Assembly (NCBI GenBank): GCA_035310145.1
Contig: DATGEL010000074.1
Span: 1 to 42,708, forward strand
Direction: 5' to 3'
DNA from: Dehalococcoidia bacterium
Lineage (GTDB): Bacteria; Chloroflexota; Dehalococcoidia; CAUJGQ01
DNA length: 42,708 bases
Both the position numbers and the translations under genes were made by a program. The notes under the pieces are model-generated. The model was not told where the DNA came from, ran no database searches, and saw only the letters and a program-made list of their open reading frames with translations. Shown here in pieces: positions 2,641-40,080 of this stretch; positions within the stretch are counted from its first letter, which is position 1; each line of letters begins with the position of its first letter.

Positions 2641-3663
2641 ATGGCGGCTGCCTTCGGATCGGCGAAGACGCGCCTGGCGGCGCGGCCCGGTGCGCCGCGT
2701 CGCCTCGACCGGCGCAAGCTGCGCAACACGGCCGTCGCCCTGCTTTTCCTGGCGCCGGCGCTGCTGATCACCGGCGTCTTCCACTTCTTCCCCGTCTTCT
2801 ACGCGTTCTGGATCAGCCTGCGCAACTGGAAGATCGCCGACCTGGGCATGGTCTGGCTGCGCAACTACAACGAGGCGCTGCACAGCCACGCCTTCTGGCA
2901 GTCGCTCGGCGTCACCGTCTACTTCGCGCTTGGCACGGTGCCGGTGACGATGGCGCTCGCCTGCCTGATCGCCTACCTGCTCTACCAGAAGGTGCGCTGG
3001 CTCGGCCTGCTGCGTACGCTCTACTTCCTGCCCTACGTCACCAGCACCGTGGCCGCGGCCAGCGTCTGGCTGTGGATCTTCAACCCGCGCGCCGGCATCG
3101 CCAATACGCTGATCGGCCACGTCGGTATCGGCAACCAGCGCTGGACGCAGGAGCCGCGGGGCATCCTGCAACTGCTGGGCAACGCGGCGCATATCAGTGT
3201 GCCCGGCCTGGTGCAGGGACCGAGCCTGGCGCTGTGCGCGATCATCATCATGACGATCTGGCACCAGCTTGGCTTCCAGGTCGTCATCTTCCTCGTCGGC
3301 CTCGGCAACATCCCCGGCGAAACCTACGAGGCGGCGCGCATCGACGGCGCCAGCGAGCGCCAGGTGTTCTGGAAGATCACGCTGCCGCAGCTGGCGCCGA
3401 TCTTCTTCTTCCTCAGCGTGATCTCGACGATCGCCGCCTTTCAGGCCTTCAACGAGATCTTCATCATCTCCAGCAACTCGAACGTGGGCGGCGCCGGCGG
3501 ACCGCTGGGCACCACGCAGACGGTGATGGTCAACGTCTACAACCAATTCCAGTCGGCGCACCGCCTGGGCTACGGCTCGGCGGTCGCCTTCATTCTCTTC
3601 GCGATCATCATGGGGCTGACGCTGGTGCAGTCCCGGCTGGGCGGGCGGTACGCGAGGGCGTAG
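2641..3663 (+). CDS. sugar-type ABC transporter permease (MalF/UgpA family)
   Basis: About 340 residues with a basic N-terminus, then membrane segments beginning at TAVALLFLAPALLITGVF. The cytoplasmic EAA loop that contacts the ATPase is clear: ETYEAARIDGASERQVFWKI followed by TLPQLAP. This is the MalF/UgpA half of a carbohydrate uptake-1 (CUT1) importer in the inner membrane. ATG 2641 is preferred over ATG 2584, which lies in a promoter-like sequence and adds a Pro/Ala-rich tail. A MalG-type permease and a binding protein follow; no ATPase is encoded nearby, so a shared MsmK-like ATPase elsewhere is likely. The substrate cannot be told from sequence. Confidence 0.9.
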   Translation: MAAAFGSAKTRLAARPGAPRRLDRRKLRNTAVALLFLAPALLITGVFHFFPVFYAFWISLRNWKIADLGMVWLRNYNEALHSHAFWQSLGVTVYFALGTVPVTMALACLIAYLLYQKVRWLGLLRTLYFLPYVTSTVAAASVWLWIFNPRAGIANTLIGHVGIGNQRWTQEPRGILQLLGNAAHISVPGLVQGPSLALCAIIIMTIWHQLGFQVVIFLVGLGNIPGETYEAARIDGASERQVFWKITLPQLAPIFFFLSVISTIAAFQAFNEIFIISSNSNVGGAGGPLGTTQTVMVNVYNQFQSAHRLGYGSAVAFILFAIIMGLTLVQSRLGGRYARA

Positions 3664-3666
3664 GGC

Positions 3667-3708
3667 GATAGGGAACAGGGAACAGGGAATAGAGGGCGGA
3701 GGGCGCAG
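3667..3708 (+). repeat. imperfect 7-bp tandem array (heptad locus H1)
   Basis: Successive units GATAGGG, AACAGGG, AACAGGG, AATAGAG, GGCGGAG, GGCGCAG begin 3 nt after the permease stop codon. The same AGGGAAC/AGGGAAT-type heptads recur at 8321, and related heptads at 21539, 32781 and 33272. Confidence 0.7.
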
Positions 3709-3790: not shown

Positions 3791-3922
3791 GTTGCGCCCG
3801 GCTACGACTGCCCCGGATAACCCAACTCGGCCACGGAACACTTCACGCTGGATCGCCCCTCTCCCTCTCTCCAGAATTGGGAGAGGGAGAGGGGCCACAG
3901 AAACGAAGTGAGGATGAGGGCC
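3791..3922. repeat. dispersed palindromic element, copy R1
   Basis: The core is a hairpin with perfect 15-bp arms (3855-3869 and 3881-3895; left arm GCCCCTCTCCCTCTC) around a loop containing CCAGAATTGG. Read on the minus strand, 3851-3922 is nearly identical to 20779-20850. The left flank (3791-3854) aligns with 20881-20948, including AACCC, TTCRC and GATCGCCCCT blocks. The copy ends 8 nt before the GTG of the next permease gene, and its GAGGATGAGGG end provides the only purine-rich sequence near that start. Confidence 0.85.
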
Positions 3923-6643: not shown

Positions 6644-6650
6644 GGTAAGC

Positions 6651-6718
6651 GCCCCTCACTCCCATACACCGCGATTCGGGGTATCCGCCTCGTGCAAGAG
6701 CGTATGGGAGAGAGGGGC
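6651..6718. repeat. 17-bp inverted repeat after the binding-protein gene
   Basis: Arms at 6651-6667 and 6702-6718 are complementary over 17 bp with one mismatch (left arm GCCCCTCACTCCCATAC), with a 34-nt loop. It begins 7 nt after the stop codon and may act as transcript end protection or terminator. The C/T-rich arm recalls the palindromic family at 3855 and 6839, but the loop differs. Confidence 0.6.
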
Positions 6719-6798
6719 TCCGCGATGAACCGTGCTCCGATGGGCATAGCCTGACCCGGCAGGCCGCGAAGGGCGCCCACCACGCGCTCACAAGCCAC

Positions 6799-6894
6799 GG
6801 CCAACCCGACGCCGCGCGTGACGCCCGACTCCGGATCGCCCCTCTCCTTCTCCCGTTCTATGGAGAAGGAGAGGGGACAGGGGTGAGGATGAGG
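6799..6894. repeat. dispersed palindromic element, copy R2
   Basis: Perfect 15-bp arms at 6839-6853 (CCCCTCTCCTTCTCC) and 6862-6876 enclose an 8-nt loop. The left flank has the AACCCGACG and GATCGCCCCT blocks seen in copies R1 and R3. The right flank has the GTGAGGATGAGG end. The minus-strand amidase gene runs into this copy and stops in its loop. Confidence 0.85.
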
Positions 6895-8303
6895 CTCGGC
6901 CGCCGCGTGTGCCACTCGGTCGCCTGCTCGTACGCGTGGGCGACGCGCAGCACCGTCGCCTCGTCCCAGCGGCGGCCGGCGATCTGCAGGCCGATCGGCA
7001 GGCCGGCGGCGGTGAAGCCGCAGGGCAACGAGACGGCGGGCTGGCCCGTCACGTTGAAGGGGATCGTGTTCGTCGTCAGCACGCTGCGGGCCAGCACCTC
7101 CTTGCCATCCAGCACGATCGTCTGGTTGGGGTTGATGCTCGGCGCTGCGATGCGCGTGGCAGGCAGGACCAGCGCCGCCCGCTCCGCCAGCAAGGCGGCC
7201 GCCTCGCGCATCGCCGCCGACTGGTGGCGAAAGGCGGCCACCAGGTCGTCGGCGGAGAGCTCGGCGCGCTCGTTCAGCCGGGTGAAGACATCCTTGCCGT
7301 AGTCGCCCGGCCGTTCGCGCAGCCACGCCTTGTGCACGTGCCGAGCCTCGCTGTAGAGGATGTTGTAGCCCGGCTCCCAGCTCGCCCACAGCGCCGGCGC
7401 CTGCACGTCCTCGACGACCGCGCCCAACTCGCGCAGCACCTCCAGCGCCGCCTCGAACGCCAGCGCCACGTCCGGCTCCAGCGCCTCGCAGAAGCCAGCG
7501 CGCGGCACGCCCAGCCGCAGCCCGCGCACGCTCACGTTCAGATCCGCGCGGTAATCCTGCAGCGGCACGGGCGGCGTCAGCGTGTCCTGCACGTCCGGGC
7601 CGGCGAGGGCCTTGAGCACGATCGCTGCGTCTTCCACCGTGTGCGTGAGCGGGCCGGCATGGTCCAGCGACCAGCTCAGCGGAAAGATGCCCGCGGTGCT
7701 GATGCGGCCGTGCGTCGGCTTCAGTCCCACCGTGCCGCAGAGCGAGGCCGGGATGCGGATGCTGCCGCCCGTGTCCGAGCCCATCGCGATCGGCGCGAGG
7801 TCGGCCGCGATCGCCGCACCGGAGCCGCCGCTGGAGCCGCCGGGAATCTGCTCGAGCCCCCAGGGGTTGCGCGTGGCGCCCCAGTGCGGGTTGTTGGTCG
7901 TGACACCGAAGGCGAACTCGTGCGTGTTCAGCTTGCCGAGCAGCACGGCGCCGGCCTGGTGAAACAGCGCGGTGGTCGTCGCGTCGGCGTCGGGCACGCG
8001 CTCGGCCAGGATCTTCGAGCCGGCGGCGGTGCGGACGCCGGCCGTGTCGTAGATGTCTTTGAGCGCGAAGGGCACACCATGCAGCGGGCCGCGGTACTCA
8101 CCGGCGAGGATCTGCTGCTCCGCCGCCCGCGCGGCGGCCAGCGCCTGTTCGGCGGTCAGAGTCACGTAGGCGTTGATCGTCGGGTTGAGCCGTGCGATGC
8201 GGTCGAGATAGGCGCGCGTCAGCTCGACGGGCGAGAGGCTGCGCCGCTCGATCTGCGCGGCGGCCTCGGCGACGGTCATGGTGGTCAGCTCGCTGGTCTG
8301 CAT
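6858..8303 (-). CDS. amidase-signature family hydrolase
   Basis: 481 residues of the GatA/amidase signature family, which hydrolyses amide bonds with a Ser-Ser-Lys triad. Lys82 is in HGVPFALKD, the cis-Ser region is PGGSSGGSG (157-158), and the nucleophile Ser181 is in GSDTGGSIRIPA. No gatC or gatB is nearby, so this is more likely a free-standing amidase than the tRNA-dependent amidotransferase subunit; the substrate is unknown. AGAGGTG sits 5 nt before ATG 8303 on the minus strand. The C-terminus is odd: the last dozen residues (SLILTPVPSPSP) are read from repeat R2, and the TAG stop lies in the hairpin loop. Confidence 0.92.
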   Translation of the reverse strand: MQTSELTTMTVAEAAAQIERRSLSPVELTRAYLDRIARLNPTINAYVTLTAEQALAAARAAEQQILAGEYRGPLHGVPFALKDIYDTAGVRTAAGSKILAERVPDADATTTALFHQAGAVLLGKLNTHEFAFGVTTNNPHWGATRNPWGLEQIPGGSSGGSGAAIAADLAPIAMGSDTGGSIRIPASLCGTVGLKPTHGRISTAGIFPLSWSLDHAGPLTHTVEDAAIVLKALAGPDVQDTLTPPVPLQDYRADLNVSVRGLRLGVPRAGFCEALEPDVALAFEAALEVLRELGAVVEDVQAPALWASWEPGYNILYSEARHVHKAWLRERPGDYGKDVFTRLNERAELSADDLVAAFRHQSAAMREAAALLAERAALVLPATRIAAPSINPNQTIVLDGKEVLARSVLTTNTIPFNVTGQPAVSLPCGFTAAGLPIGLQIAGRRWDEATVLRVAHAYEQATEWHTRRPSLILTPVPSPSP

Positions 8304-17891: not shown

Positions 17892-18480
17892 TTGACGAGC
17901 GCGCCGACGATGGCTGCTTTCGTCAAAGTTCGCCGCGGACTGCCAGTCAGTCTTCGCTGCACCTCGACATCAGCCCTGACTGAGCGGTTCGGGGTGAGCA
18001 GCCGCACCATCGAGCGTGATCTCCGCTCGCTGCAAGACGCAGGCGTGCCTCTCTATGCGACGGCGGGTCGACGAGGCGGCTACGCCATCCTTCCCGGCTT
18101 TGCGCGTCCACCGGTCCGACTCAGCGCTCAGGAGGCAGCCGCCTGCCTTGCGGCTCTGGCGCTCATGGATCGATCGCCCTACGCGACGCATGCGCGAACC
18201 GCGGCCGACAAGCCGGTGGCCGGCCTGCCGGCGGCTGTCTATAGTGCAATGCCGGTCGACGCGGTCATGTCTCTCCAGTCGCCACAGGCTGCCACAACCG
18301 GCGCGTGGATCGATGCGCTTCACGAGCACCACCTCCTAGCACTTACCTACCTCTCAGAGACCCACGCCGTGGCGCACTCGAAGGCTGACGGCACCACTCC
18401 AACCACCATCGATCCTACACCGCCTGCGCCAACCACCCGCCCTCCATGCGATTGACCAATGCCCCCGATCAGTACAGCTA
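17892..18480 (+). pseudogene. broken WYL/YafY-type transcriptional regulator
   Basis: A DeoR-like helix-turn-helix is clear (LTERFGVSSRTIERDLRSLQ, DAGVPLYATAGRRGGYAILP), followed by the linker PPVRLSAQEAAACLAALALM and the start of a WYL domain at LLALTYLSETHAV. After that the frame turns into Thr/Pro-rich noise and stops at 18455. Another frame over about 18378-18470 gives HHSNHHRSYTA and PPSMRLTN, which look like displaced WYL residues, so a frameshift near 18375 broke the gene. The N-terminus also lacks a good ribosome site. An intact protein would be about 300 residues or more. Confidence 0.65.
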
Positions 18481-18689
18481 GCTCAGGCAGCCCTGGCGCC
18501 GCGGACTGCGACGCGCGGCGCTGCCAGGCATTCACTGCTGCCCTAAGTCGGCCGCTCCTGTATGATCGGGGCCATCGCCGGTGGCAGTGCAGCGCGGCCA
18601 AACCGCCGCAGCGCCGCGGCTCCGCCGTGCGCTCAGCAACGCCCGAACGCTCACCCAAACACGTAAAGGAAGAGAGGGTCTGGCCGGTT

Positions 18690-20768
18690 ATGAAGGAGTA
18701 CGACACCCGTTCCATTCGCAACGTCGCCATCGTCGGCCACGGTGGAACGGGAAAGACCTCGCTCGCCGAGGCCATGCTGTTCGAGGCGGGGGCGATCAAC
18801 CGGCTCGGGCGGGTCGAAGACGGCAACACCGCCTCCGACTTCGACCCCGACGAGCTGAAGCGCAAGATGAGCGTCAACACGTCGATCCTGCCCTGCGAGT
18901 GGAAGGAGATGAAGGTCAACATCCTCGACACGCCGGGTTACGCGGACTTCGTGGGCGAGGCGAAGGCCGGCGTCCGCGCCGCCGACGCCGTGCTGATCGC
19001 CGTCGACGCCTCTTCCGGCGTGCAGGTCGGCACCGAATCGGCCTGGGGCTACGCCGAGGAGTCGGGCAGTCCGCGCGCCTTCGTCGTCAACCGCATCGAC
19101 CGCGAGAACGCGGACTTCTTCGCCGCGCTGACGCAGATGCAGGCGGCGTTCGGCAACAAGGTGGTGGCGCTGCAACTGCCGATCGGCGCCCACGAGAGCT
19201 TCGCCGGCGTGATCGACCTGGTCTCGATGAAGGCCTACATGGGCGAGAAAGCGACGGAGAGCGCCATCCCCGGCGACCTCGAAGCGACAGCGGCCGAGCA
19301 CCGCGAGAAGCTGGTGGAGGCCGTGGCCGAGGCCGACGACGAGCTGATCTCCAGGTACCTCGAAGGCGAGGAGCTTTCTGAGGACGAGGTGCGCCGCGCC
19401 CTGCGCACGGCAATCATCCAGGGCGTGGCGGCGCCGGTGATGGTCGGCTCGGCCGCGCGCAACGTCGGCATCGCCGCGGTGCTGGACGAGATCGTCGCCA
19501 ACTTCCCCTCGCCCTTCGACGTGCCCTCGCCCAGGGCGCACAAGCCCGACGCCGGCGAAGAGGAGCTGAAGGACGACCCGGCCGGCCCGCTCGCCGCGCT
19601 GGTCTTCAAGACTACGGCCGACCCGTTCGTCGGCAAGCTGACCTACTTCCGCGTCTACTCCGGCACGCTTCACAGCAACAGCGAGGTCTGGAACGCCAAC
19701 CGCAACCACGCCGAGCGCGTGGGCCAGCTCTTCCACGTGCGCGGCAAGACGCAGGAGCCGGTGGCGCAGATCGTCGCCGGCGACATCGCCGCGGTGGCGA
19801 AACTGGCTGAAACGGCCACCAACGACACCCTCTGCAGCAAGGACCATCCGCTAAACGTTTCGCCGATCGCGCTGCCGGCGCCCGTGCACCGCATGGCCGT
19901 CTTCCCTAAGACGAAATCCGACGCGGACAAGGTGGGCCACGCGCTGCAGCGGCTGGCGGAGGAGGACCCCACGCTGCGCATCGAGCGCGACGCCGAGACG
20001 CACGAGATGATCGTCGCCGGCCTGGGCGAGTCGCACATCGAGGTCGCGGCGGAGAAGATGCAGCGCAAGTTCAACGTCGGCGTTGAAGTGAAGCTGCCGC
20101 GCGTGCCCTACCGCGAGACGGTGACGCAGCCGACGACGGCGCACTACCGGCACAAGAAGCAGACCGGCGGCGCCGGTCAGTTCGGCGAGGTGGACATCGA
20201 GATCGAGCCGCTGCCGCGCGGCTCCGGCTTCGAGTTCACGGAGCGCATCGTGGGCGGCACGGTGCCGCGCGAGTTCTGGAGCCCGACCGAGAAGGGCGTG
20301 CGCGAGGCGCTGAGCGGCGGCGTGATCGCCGGCTATCCGGTGGTGGACGTGCGCGTGACGCTGGTGGACGGCAAGACGCACCCGGTGGACTCGAAGGCGG
20401 TGGCGTTCGAGATCGCCGGCTCGCAGGCCGTGAAGGAGGGCGTGCCGAAGGCGCACCCGATCCTGATCGAGCCGATCATGGATCTGAAGATCACCGTGCC
20501 CGACACCTACACCGGCGACGTGATCAGCGACCTGAACACGAAGCGGGCGCGCACGCAGGGCATGTCGCCGGCGGGCAAGGGGCTGACGCTGATCGAGGCG
20601 CAGGCGCCGCAGGCCGAACTGCAACGCTACGCCACGGATCTGCGCTCGATCACGCAGGGCCGCGGCACCTTCACCGCAAGCTTCAGCCACTACGAAGAGG
20701 TGCCGCACAACGTCGCGCAGAAGGTGATCGACGAGCACAAGCGCGAGGTAGAGAGCAAGACGGCGTAG
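18690..20768 (+). CDS. fusA2: elongation factor G-like GTPase (EF-G type II)
   Basis: 692 residues. The P-loop GHGGTGKTSLAEAMLF, switch/G3 DTPGYADFVGE and G4 NRID identify a translational GTPase; the GHGGTGKT form of the P-loop belongs to the EF-G-like second paralogue group rather than canonical EF-G (GHIDAGKT). Domains II, III, IV (HKKQTGGAGQFGEVDIEIE) and V (HPILIEPIMDLKITVPDTY) are all present. Canonical EF-G sits with rpsL/rpsG and tufA; this gene stands alone, so it probably does not replace it, and its role is unclear. ATG 18690 is about 11 nt after GAGAGGG. The preceding 234 bp hold only a weak TATGAT (18561-18566). Confidence 0.92.
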   Translation: MKEYDTRSIRNVAIVGHGGTGKTSLAEAMLFEAGAINRLGRVEDGNTASDFDPDELKRKMSVNTSILPCEWKEMKVNILDTPGYADFVGEAKAGVRAADAVLIAVDASSGVQVGTESAWGYAEESGSPRAFVVNRIDRENADFFAALTQMQAAFGNKVVALQLPIGAHESFAGVIDLVSMKAYMGEKATESAIPGDLEATAAEHREKLVEAVAEADDELISRYLEGEELSEDEVRRALRTAIIQGVAAPVMVGSAARNVGIAAVLDEIVANFPSPFDVPSPRAHKPDAGEEELKDDPAGPLAALVFKTTADPFVGKLTYFRVYSGTLHSNSEVWNANRNHAERVGQLFHVRGKTQEPVAQIVAGDIAAVAKLAETATNDTLCSKDHPLNVSPIALPAPVHRMAVFPKTKSDADKVGHALQRLAEEDPTLRIERDAETHEMIVAGLGESHIEVAAEKMQRKFNVGVEVKLPRVPYRETVTQPTTAHYRHKKQTGGAGQFGEVDIEIEPLPRGSGFEFTERIVGGTVPREFWSPTEKGVREALSGGVIAGYPVVDVRVTLVDGKTHPVDSKAVAFEIAGSQAVKEGVPKAHPILIEPIMDLKITVPDTYTGDVISDLNTKRARTQGMSPAGKGLTLIEAQAPQAELQRYATDLRSITQGRGTFTASFSHYEEVPHNVAQKVIDEHKREVESKTA

Positions 20769-20779
20769 CGAGGCGGGGT

Positions 20780-20995
20780 GGCCCTCATCCTCACCTCGTT
20801 TCTGTGGCCCCTCTCCTTCTCCCAATACTGGAGAGAAGGAGAGGGGCGATCGGGCGTAGAGCGATCCGGGTAGACGTCGGGTTGCGCGGTGCGCCGCTAC
20901 AACATCCGGCTAACCCGACGTCCTCGCGGTTCGCTTTACGCCCGATCGCCCCTTCCTCCCAATCCTGGGAGAAAGGGGACGGGGGATTGAGGGCC
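20780..20995. repeat. dispersed palindromic element, double copy R3
   Basis: Two C/T-rich hairpins face each other. Hairpin 1 has perfect 15-bp arms (20807-20821, 20833-20847); hairpin 2 has 13-bp arms with one mismatch (20949-20961, 20966-20978). Between them 37-nt arms at 20847-20883 and 20912-20948 match 32 of 37 as inverted repeats, leaving a 28-nt centre. The element lies between the EF-G-like gene and the minus-strand acetyltransferase and overlaps the 3' end of the latter. Confidence 0.9.
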
Positions 20996-21538
20996 GAGCG
21001 CGTGATATTCGTGCTCCAGCACGCTCATGCGCAGATCGCTGTACCAGTGCCCGTCGATCAGCACGGTTTCGCGCTCAAAGCCTTCCTCCACGAAGCCGCA
21101 CTTCCGGTAGCAGGCGATCGCGCGGGCGTTGTATTCCAGCACGCGCAGATCGATGCGGTGCAGCTGCAACGCCTCGAAAGCGTGGCCCAGCACCAGCCGC
21201 GTCGCCTCCGTGCCCAACCCCTGGCTCCAGAGCGCCGGGTCGAAGATGCCGATCGCAAAGCGGGCGTTGCGATCGTGCTCGTCCAGGGAGTGCAGGAAGG
21301 TGTTGCCCACACAGCGGCCCTGCGCTTCTATCACCCAGGCAAGCGGGTCGCGGGCGAAGCGCCGGTACCACAGATCGACCTCGGCCTCGGTCATGGCGAC
21401 GGGCGTGGCAGCGGCGCCGCCGAACATGCGCACCGACTCCGGGTCGCGGCCGCAGGCCAGGCGATCGGCTTTGTCTCGCGGGCGCGCGGGCCGCAGGGTC
21501 ACGCGCCCGCCGCGCAGCACCGGCGCCCTCGCGCTCAC
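20936..21538 (-). CDS. GNAT family N-acetyltransferase (RimJ/RimL-like)
   Basis: About 200 residues. The GNAT acetyl-CoA fold is seen in VTLRPARPRDKADRLACGRD, the beta-bulge region FAIGIFDPALWSQGLGTEAT (QGLGTEA being the pyrophosphate-binding motif A), LHRIDLRVLEYNARAIACYR and KCGFVEEGFERE. This layout is that of the RimJ/RimL or small-molecule acetyltransferases; substrate unknown. The start GTG overlaps the stop of the gene upstream (GTGA), so translation is probably coupled. The natural fold ends near LRMSVLEHEY; the last ~20 residues (ALGPQSPVPFLPGLGGRGDR) are read through repeat R3. Confidence 0.88.
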   Translation of the reverse strand: MSARAPVLRGGRVTLRPARPRDKADRLACGRDPESVRMFGGAAATPVAMTEAEVDLWYRRFARDPLAWVIEAQGRCVGNTFLHSLDEHDRNARFAIGIFDPALWSQGLGTEATRLVLGHAFEALQLHRIDLRVLEYNARAIACYRKCGFVEEGFERETVLIDGHWYSDLRMSVLEHEYHALGPQSPVPFLPGLGGRGDRA

Positions 21539-32780: not shown

Positions 32781-32815
32781 AGGAAATAGAATGTAGGAGA
32801 TAGGAAATAGGGGAA
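32781..32815 (+). repeat. heptad array H4
   Basis: AGGAAAT, AGAATGT, AGGAGAT, AGGAAAT, AGGGGAA in tandem. Together with H5 (33272), which has the same unit in inverted orientation, it flanks the four-helix-bundle pseudogene. Confidence 0.7.
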
Positions 32816-33246: not shown

Positions 33247-33271
33247 CCCACGGTCTCCTGGAGACCACCCT

Positions 33272-33306
33272 CTATTTCCTATTTCCTGTATCCTATTTCC
33301 TCATTC
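33272..33306 (+). repeat. heptad array H5 containing the glyS stop codon
   Basis: CTATTTC, CTATTTC, CTGTATC, CTATTTC, CTCATTC. The TGA of the minus-strand glycyl-tRNA synthetase gene (33301-33303) is inside the last unit. Confidence 0.7.
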
Positions 33307-34796: not shown

Positions 34797-34811
34797 ACGG
34801 CGCGGCCGGTC

Positions 34812-34955
34812 GGCCCTCACCGCATTTCACATCCCCCTCTCCCAATCCTGGGCGAGGGGGACTCTGTGTCGCGCCTTCAGCCCAACCCTCCGTCTATCGA
34901 TCTCCCCTTCCCCTAGAATTGGGGGCCAAGGAATGAACCGGGGGATGGGGGCCCG
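34812..34955. repeat. dispersed palindromic element, copy R4
   Basis: Hairpin a pairs 34833-34839 with 34854-34860 and CCCA with TGGG inside it; hairpin b centres on CCCCTAGAATTGGGG near 34911-34924. The segment 34863-34925 is nearly identical to 38365-38429 of copy R5. It fills the gap between the glyS promoter and the enoyl-CoA hydratase stop. Confidence 0.85.
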
Positions 34956-38292: not shown

Positions 38293-38453
38293 GCCCTCAA
38301 CCCAGGGTCGGTCTCATCGTCCCAATCGCGGGAGAGGGGAGCTTCGGACCGGAGCTGGGGAGGCTCTGCGCCATGCCTTCAGCCCTAACCGCTCCGTGCA
38401 TCGATCACCCCTTCCCCTAGAATTGGGGGAAGGGGTCGGGGGATGGGGGTCCG
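38293..38453. repeat. dispersed palindromic element, copy R5
   Basis: Perfect 10-bp arms at 38408-38417 (CCCCTTCCCC) and 38426-38435 flank the loop TAGAATTG. The preceding CTTCAGCCCTAACC segment matches copy R4, and a CCCTCAACCC edge is present at 38293. The translin-family gene enters this copy and stops in the loop. Confidence 0.85.
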
Positions 38454-39890: not shown

Positions 39891-39946
39891 CGCTGGCTCG
39901 CCTCTCCAGCATAACGGCGCCGGGCGTGAGGGCCAACGGGCCATCG

Positions 39947-40080
39947 GCCCTCATCCCCAACCCTTCCCCCAATCCTGGGTCAGGCGCTCCGCTCACGGTG
40001 CGGTTAGCCCGCCGCCCCGACGCCGCCCCGTACGATCCCCCTCACCCAGGATTGGGAGAGGGACCCGGGGGTGAGGGCCG
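39947..40080. repeat. dispersed palindromic element, double copy R6
   Basis: Two halves face each other: CCCAATCCTGGGT (39968-39980) is perfectly inverted at 40044-40056, with CCCTCATCCCC and GGGGTGAGGG as outer edges. The 63-nt centre has no gene. It separates yraN from the FmdB pair. Confidence 0.85.

What the first reader, a model, noticed from the sequence alone, without database searches (positions are those of the whole stretch)
20807..20978. Nested giant palindrome: two hairpins joined by 37-nt inverted arms
R3 is hairpin - arm - 28-nt centre - arm - hairpin. The 37-nt arms match at 32 of 37 positions, including CGATCGGGCGTA and GACGTCGGGTT blocks. This is a more complete unit than the other loci, and may be the founding form. 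R1 and R2 keep one arm plus one hairpin.
Basis: seen in the sequence. Interest (0 to 1): 0.6.

Follow-up and report, generated by a model that had tools for sequence, protein, structure and literature searches.

The report
Inverted pair of DNA-triplex hairpins
A 216-base palindrome between two genes of an uncultured Chloroflexota bacterium is one of about 80 related copies built from two facing hairpins, each with a spare strand that matches it as a DNA triple helix would, and across copies the three strands change together, which suggests the triple helix matters to the cell.

Summary
The true unit is larger: 20780-20995, 216 bp, ending GGCCCTCA...TGAGGGCC. About 85 end matches lie in this 5.3-Mb genome (0 in the reversed control), some 41 of them full elements of 160-356 bp. 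Each end tract is a mirror of its neighbouring hairpin arm. This is the layout of the class II intrastrand-triplex motif (Box C / PIT / TM; PMC4666352), here longer (up to 16 triads) and paired. In 90 units 94% of positions fit the purine-motif rule; no shuffle of third strands reached this, even with each type counted once. Such three-strand covariation was not in the papers I read. The copies sit mostly 2-21 nt after stop codons, rarely between divergent genes. There are no target duplications and no Y1/RAYT gene. R3 is not the founding form: its long inner arms are exceptional and share a base seen in no other copy. A relaxed TM pattern occurs in 138 of 301 Chloroflexota genomes, one with 832 sites. 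Triplex formation, spread and function are inferred. New variant of a known kind.

The parts
20780..20995 (.). complete element R3, 216 bp, ends GGCCCTCA...TGAGGGCC
   Evidence: family ends defined on 85 genomic matches, 0 in reversed control
20782..20797 (+). left third-strand tract CCCTCATCCTCACCTC, mirror of the left hairpin 5' arm (15 of 16 triads)
20807..20847 (+). left polypyrimidine/polypurine hairpin (arm CCCCTCTCCTTCTCCC at 20808-20823)
20847..20883 (+). left inner palindrome arm, 32 of 37 complementary to the right arm
20884..20911 (.). 28-nt centre
20912..20948 (-). right inner palindrome arm; holds the stop codon of the GNAT gene (20936-20938)
20949..20978 (-). right hairpin
20981..20993 (-). 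right third-strand tract; read on the minus strand CCCTCAATCCCCC, 12 of 13 triads with its own hairpin, and a different sequence from the left tract
18459..20768 (+). EF-G-like translation factor; stop codon 11 nt before the element
   Evidence: Pfam EFG_IV, GTP_EFTU, EFG_C
20936..21538 (-). GNAT acetyltransferase; its last 22 residues are read from the element
   Evidence: Pfam Acetyltransf_3; translation; homologs' matches mostly stop at or before the element boundary
3834..3922 (-). R1, left-type unit only, inner side decayed
6650..6896 (-). R2, degenerate copy with remnants of both halves (approximate bounds)

Best explanation
R3 is a dispersed extragenic element made of two intrastrand-triplex hairpins facing each other, joined by inner arms that can form a cruciform. 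Wherever its strand is single (replication, negative supercoiling), each hairpin can fold and its outer purine tract can lie back in the groove, giving G.G:C, A.A:T and T.A:T triads. Shown by computation: the layout, the copy number, the mirror match, the covariation of the three strands across copies, and the position just after stop codons. Inferred: that the triplex forms in the cell; that it makes a two-sided barrier between neighbouring transcription units, slowing polymerases that run past gene ends; and that copies spread by an unidentified non-RAYT route and survive mainly where they do least harm, next to gene 3' ends.
For: 85 end matches against 0 in the reversed control. Triad rule met at 1168 of 1244 positions in 90 units; shuffled third strands mean 1061, sd 9, maximum 1094 of 2000. 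With the 44 distinct third/arm types counted once: 536 of 588, none of 10000 shuffles; with 28 distinct arms: none of 10000. Sliding the register by one drops the fit from 0.94 to 0.45-0.47; direct orientation gives 0.54. Unbiased scan of 0.84 Mb: 36 of 122 all-pyrimidine hairpins have a 9/9 third strand upstream, 0 with shuffled upstream. The left end starts 2-21 nt after the stop codon in 47 of 54 cases. Signals in 13 of 121 convergent, 22 of 482 tandem and 2 of 123 divergent gaps. In tandem gaps 16 of 19 elements lie nearer the stop than the next start (uniform placement P 0.0025). The related E. coli motif forms a stable triplex in vitro (PMC4666352).
Against: In E. coli, in vivo footprinting did not show stable triplex, and these motifs had no promoter or terminator activity and no distance trend to genes (PMC4666352). 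Copies are related and whole units may be exchanged by gene conversion, so the number of independent coordinated changes is not known. No expression data.
Confidence: 0.66

Rival explanations
1. Bidirectional transcription terminator (intrinsic, or Rho-dependent with the C-rich, G-poor outer tract as a Rho loading site), placed by selection just after stop codons.
For: Tight stop-proximal position and convergent preference; Rho is encoded in the genome; Enterobacter sp. 638 repeats of this motif are often at gene 3' ends and were presumed terminators (PMC2869309).
Against: No U-tract terminator-like site at R3; PIT elements had no terminator activity in E. coli (cited in PMC4666352); a terminator does not need a third strand that covaries with the hairpin.
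Confidence: 0.3
2. REP/BIME-type repeat mobilised by a RAYT (Y1) transposase.
For: Same genomic distribution as REPs: close to 3' ends, convergent and unidirectional gaps (PMC3733652).
Against: No Y1_Tnp match in a genome estimated 99.8% complete, while the control genomes ring; no GTAG/CGTC tag beside the hairpins; element several times longer than a REP.
Confidence: 0.08
3. MITE, a non-autonomous relative of a DDE insertion sequence, with the outer tracts as terminal inverted repeats.
For: Terminal inverted repeats, dispersed copies, GNAT (R3) and probably other genes whose stop codon falls inside the element, as after insertion.
Against: No target-site duplication of 2-10 bp; no pair of ends spaced as around a transposase in the genome-wide list; left and right ends differ and each matches its own hairpin.
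Confidence: 0.2

Closest known systems
TM_ECO / Box C / PIT intrastrand triplex motif (PMC4666352)
   Same: Polypyrimidine-polypurine hairpin plus adjacent purine third strand of class II type, same T/A placement in the third strand, GC-rich, intergenic, sometimes in inverted pairs (five in E. coli MG1655).
   Different: R3's units are longer (up to 16 triads, against 9-nt stems), vary in sequence, have longer second loops and inner arms, and lie at gene ends; the published TM_ECO was tallied in 262 proteobacterial genomes and showed no distance trend in E. coli.
REP/BIME elements (PMC3733652)
   Same: Dispersed palindromes, often paired in opposite orientation, less than 20 bp from 3' ends in convergent gaps.
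   Different: No GTAG/CGTC tag, no RAYT gene, much longer, with a third strand.
CCCTCTCCC-XX(X)-GGGAGAGGG repeats of Enterobacter sp. 638 (PMC2869309)
   Same: Same hairpin core, often duplicated at gene 3' ends.
   Different: Described only as hairpins; third strand and inner arms not noted in the passages read.

Membership tests
TM_ECO (strict published pattern) | CCCTCNCCC N3-6 GGGNGAGGG N3 GGGNGAGGG | tested here: not met
   R3's hairpins read CCCCTCTCCTTCTCCC and CCCCTTCCTCCC, so neither fits; 55 other sites of the genome fit the pattern with longer loops
class II intrastrand triplex (PIT) elements, broad sense | hairpin followed by a purine tract giving G.G:C, A.A:T or T.A:T at nearly all positions of a stem of 8 nt or more | tested here: met
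   R3 left 15/16, right 12/13; 1168/1244 over 90 units
class II intrastrand triplex (PIT) elements, broad sense | forms a triplex in vitro | not testable with these tools
   needs CD, NMR or chemical probing; shown for the E. coli motif (PMC4666352)
class II intrastrand triplex (PIT) elements, broad sense | intergenic position | tested here: met
   most copies lie in gaps; a few overlap a gene end, R3 included
REP/RAYT system | Y1 (IS200/IS605-like) transposase gene in the genome | tested here: not met
   0 matches to PF01797, control genomes positive
REP/RAYT system | unpaired GTAG or CGTC tag at one end of the stem-loop | tested here: not met
   read directly: the hairpins are followed by CGATC; CGTC occurs only inside the inner arms
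MITE | target-site duplication | tested here: not met
   41 full elements, direct repeats of 2-10 bp no more than in permuted flanks, apart from a marginal excess at 10 bp (P 0.035) with no exact repeat
MITE | autonomous relative with the same ends | tested here: inconclusive
   end positions show no transposase-sized pair; transposase genes not surveyed one by one

The most novel reading that the evidence does not exclude
Intrastrand DNA triplexes are maintained by selection in living cells: across naturally diverged copies in one genome the third strand changes together with both strands of its own hairpin, in the antiparallel purine-motif pattern, which copying between inverted arms cannot produce.
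Probability: 0.4. Interest if true: 0.75.

Novelty: new variant of a known kind. Interest (0 to 1): 0.52.

Why it matters
Whether the abundant bacterial triplex motifs ever act as triplexes in cells is open: the one in vivo probing read here was negative, and the E. coli copies vary little. This genome holds dozens of diverged copies, so the question becomes testable from sequence. The survey also places the motif widely in Chloroflexota (138 of 301 genomes, up to 832 sites in one with a relaxed pattern, against a published maximum of 143 with the strict one), giving many genomes for such tests.

Tried and rejected
Rfam (0 hits). RAYT origin. Target duplications. Exact end-plus-hairpin pattern in viral and GTDB contigs: 0 (the window's own genome may be left out there). 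BLAST of R3 in 147 other genomes of the class: 0, so this extended form was seen only here. Intrinsic terminator scan: 0. A first triad count with the hairpin register taken one base off gave low scores and was replaced by a register anchored at the loop. Simple pyrimidine-motif rule (third base equal to arm base) fits less well, 0.83 against 0.94. Empty-site comparison was not possible: only one other genome of the family is held and no other of the genus. EF-G loci of three relatives carry no element signal.

Full report
What is there. The whole folds far better than shuffled sequence.

Extent. The genome (G000, 5.32 Mb, 148 contigs) has 85 places within one mismatch of the left end GGCCCTCAYCCTCAC and none for the reversed control. 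Some 41 distinct elements (160-356 bp, plus a 93-bp one) run to a right end, usually ...GAGGGCC. R3 is therefore 20780-20995. The window also holds R1, R2 and degenerate copies near 34811-34937, 38330-38451 and 39946-40077. The genome is probably a Dehalococcoidia (Chloroflexota): of the four named records that match the neighbouring EF-G-like protein, one is a MAG called Dehalococcoidia bacterium and two are Chloroflexi MAGs, and the sampled genomes of its class include 1.4-1.5 Mb ones, one of them a single contig, as Dehalococcoides would give (the last point is inference).

Two units, not one palindrome. Each end tract is a mirror image of the 5' arm of the adjacent hairpin: C faces C, and T or A faces T. 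Read on the opposite strand this is a hairpin followed by a purine tract that can lie antiparallel on the purine arm with G.G:C, A.A:T and T.A:T triads, the class II intrastrand triplex described for E. coli Box C / PIT / TM (PMC4666352). R3's left unit meets the rule at 15 of 16 and its right unit, with a different third strand and a different hairpin, at 12 of 13.

Covariation. Over 90 units 1168 of 1244 positions fit; third strands shuffled among units give 1061 (sd 9, maximum 1094 of 2000). Left units alone 953 of 999 (shuffled 910, sd 6) and right units alone 215 of 245 (shuffled 191, sd 4.6): none of 5000 shuffles reached either. With each of 44 distinct third/arm types counted once the result is 536 of 588, and with 28 distinct arms 328 of 367; none of 10000 shuffles reached either. 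A register slide of one base gives 0.45-0.47 and direct orientation 0.54. At column 7 the counts are C/C 35, W/T 47, W/C 7, C/T 0 (Fisher 4e-18 for all units, 4e-7 for types); columns 8 and 12 also covary. A scan not based on the ends finds 36 of 122 pyrimidine hairpins with a perfect 9-nt third strand upstream in 0.84 Mb of this genome and 19 of 41 in 0.1 Mb of genome G412, against none with shuffled upstream. Caveats: copies are related, whole units may be exchanged, and the shuffles do not model a tree. Copying between inverted arms explains complementary arms but not mirror symmetry.

Position. With gene calls from a codon-usage script, 47 of 54 left ends that follow a gene lie 2-21 nt after its stop codon and 30 of 35 right ends 2-36 nt (a few elements are counted from both ends). 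In 0.84 Mb, 13 of 121 convergent, 22 of 482 tandem and 2 of 123 divergent gaps hold a signal. In tandem gaps 16 of 19 elements are nearer the stop than the next start. REPs have this distribution (PMC3733652); E. coli TM motifs were reported without a distance trend (PMC4666352). In R3 the GNAT gene reads through the element's end and stops in the right arm, with a 22-residue tail from the element; homologs mostly match only up to about residue 180. This fits insertion at a gene end.

Origin. No target duplications, no Y1 transposase, no transposase-sized pair of ends. R3's long inner arms rank first of 41 (score 27; second 22, the rest 17 or less). The base A in ACGTCGGG of both R3 arms was found in none of the other 15 left and 8 right arms that could be read. 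So R3 is a copy whose arms were probably homogenised, not the founder.

Wider occurrence. A relaxed TM pattern (both loops lengthened) is in 63 of 148 genomes of the class and 138 of 301 of the phylum, with no match to the reversed pattern, and 832 sites in one genome. Similar 35-nt cores are in plasmids of Klebsiella, Rhizobium, Azospirillum and others and in 4439 of 5426 E. coli genomes. In 20 chosen loci of relatives, inverted pairs with third strands outside (as in R3) lay at gene 3' ends in 5 of 5, and pairs with third strands inside were in divergent gaps in 4 of 7; small numbers.

Mechanism. Most likely a DNA-level structure: two triplex-capable hairpins flanking a cruciform, acting as a two-sided barrier at gene ends, or simply tolerated there. 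Shown: anatomy, covariation, position. Inferred: triplex in the cell, barrier function, mode of spread. A terminator role is the main functional rival; Rho is present but no U-tract terminator is seen at R3.

Noticed in passing
genome G412 (Chloroflexota), whole genome: 832 sites of the relaxed TM pattern in 4.5 Mb (424 forward, 408 reverse, control 0), far above the published maximum of 143 for the strict pattern; 19 of 41 pyrimidine hairpins in 0.1 Mb have a perfect third strand.
   Followed up: partly
loci L210-L229: Orientation of inverted TM pairs appears to follow gene orientation: third strands outside at 3' ends, inside in divergent gaps (5 of 5 and 4 of 7).
   Followed up: partly
window 6858-8303 (-): Amidase gene whose stop codon lies inside the R2 hairpin, like the GNAT gene at R3.
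   Followed up: no
loci L025, L031, L033, L073, L096, L103: Hairpin loops of some copies carry a second, nested hairpin (for example ...TATCGCGTGGAACGCGATG...), as if palindromes were inserted into palindromes.
   Followed up: no
window 32781-32813 and 33269-33301; 3660-3690: A-rich low-complexity repeats (AGGAAATAG..., GGGAACAGGGAATAG) in a 69% GC genome, one pair as inverted repeats 455 nt apart.
   Followed up: no
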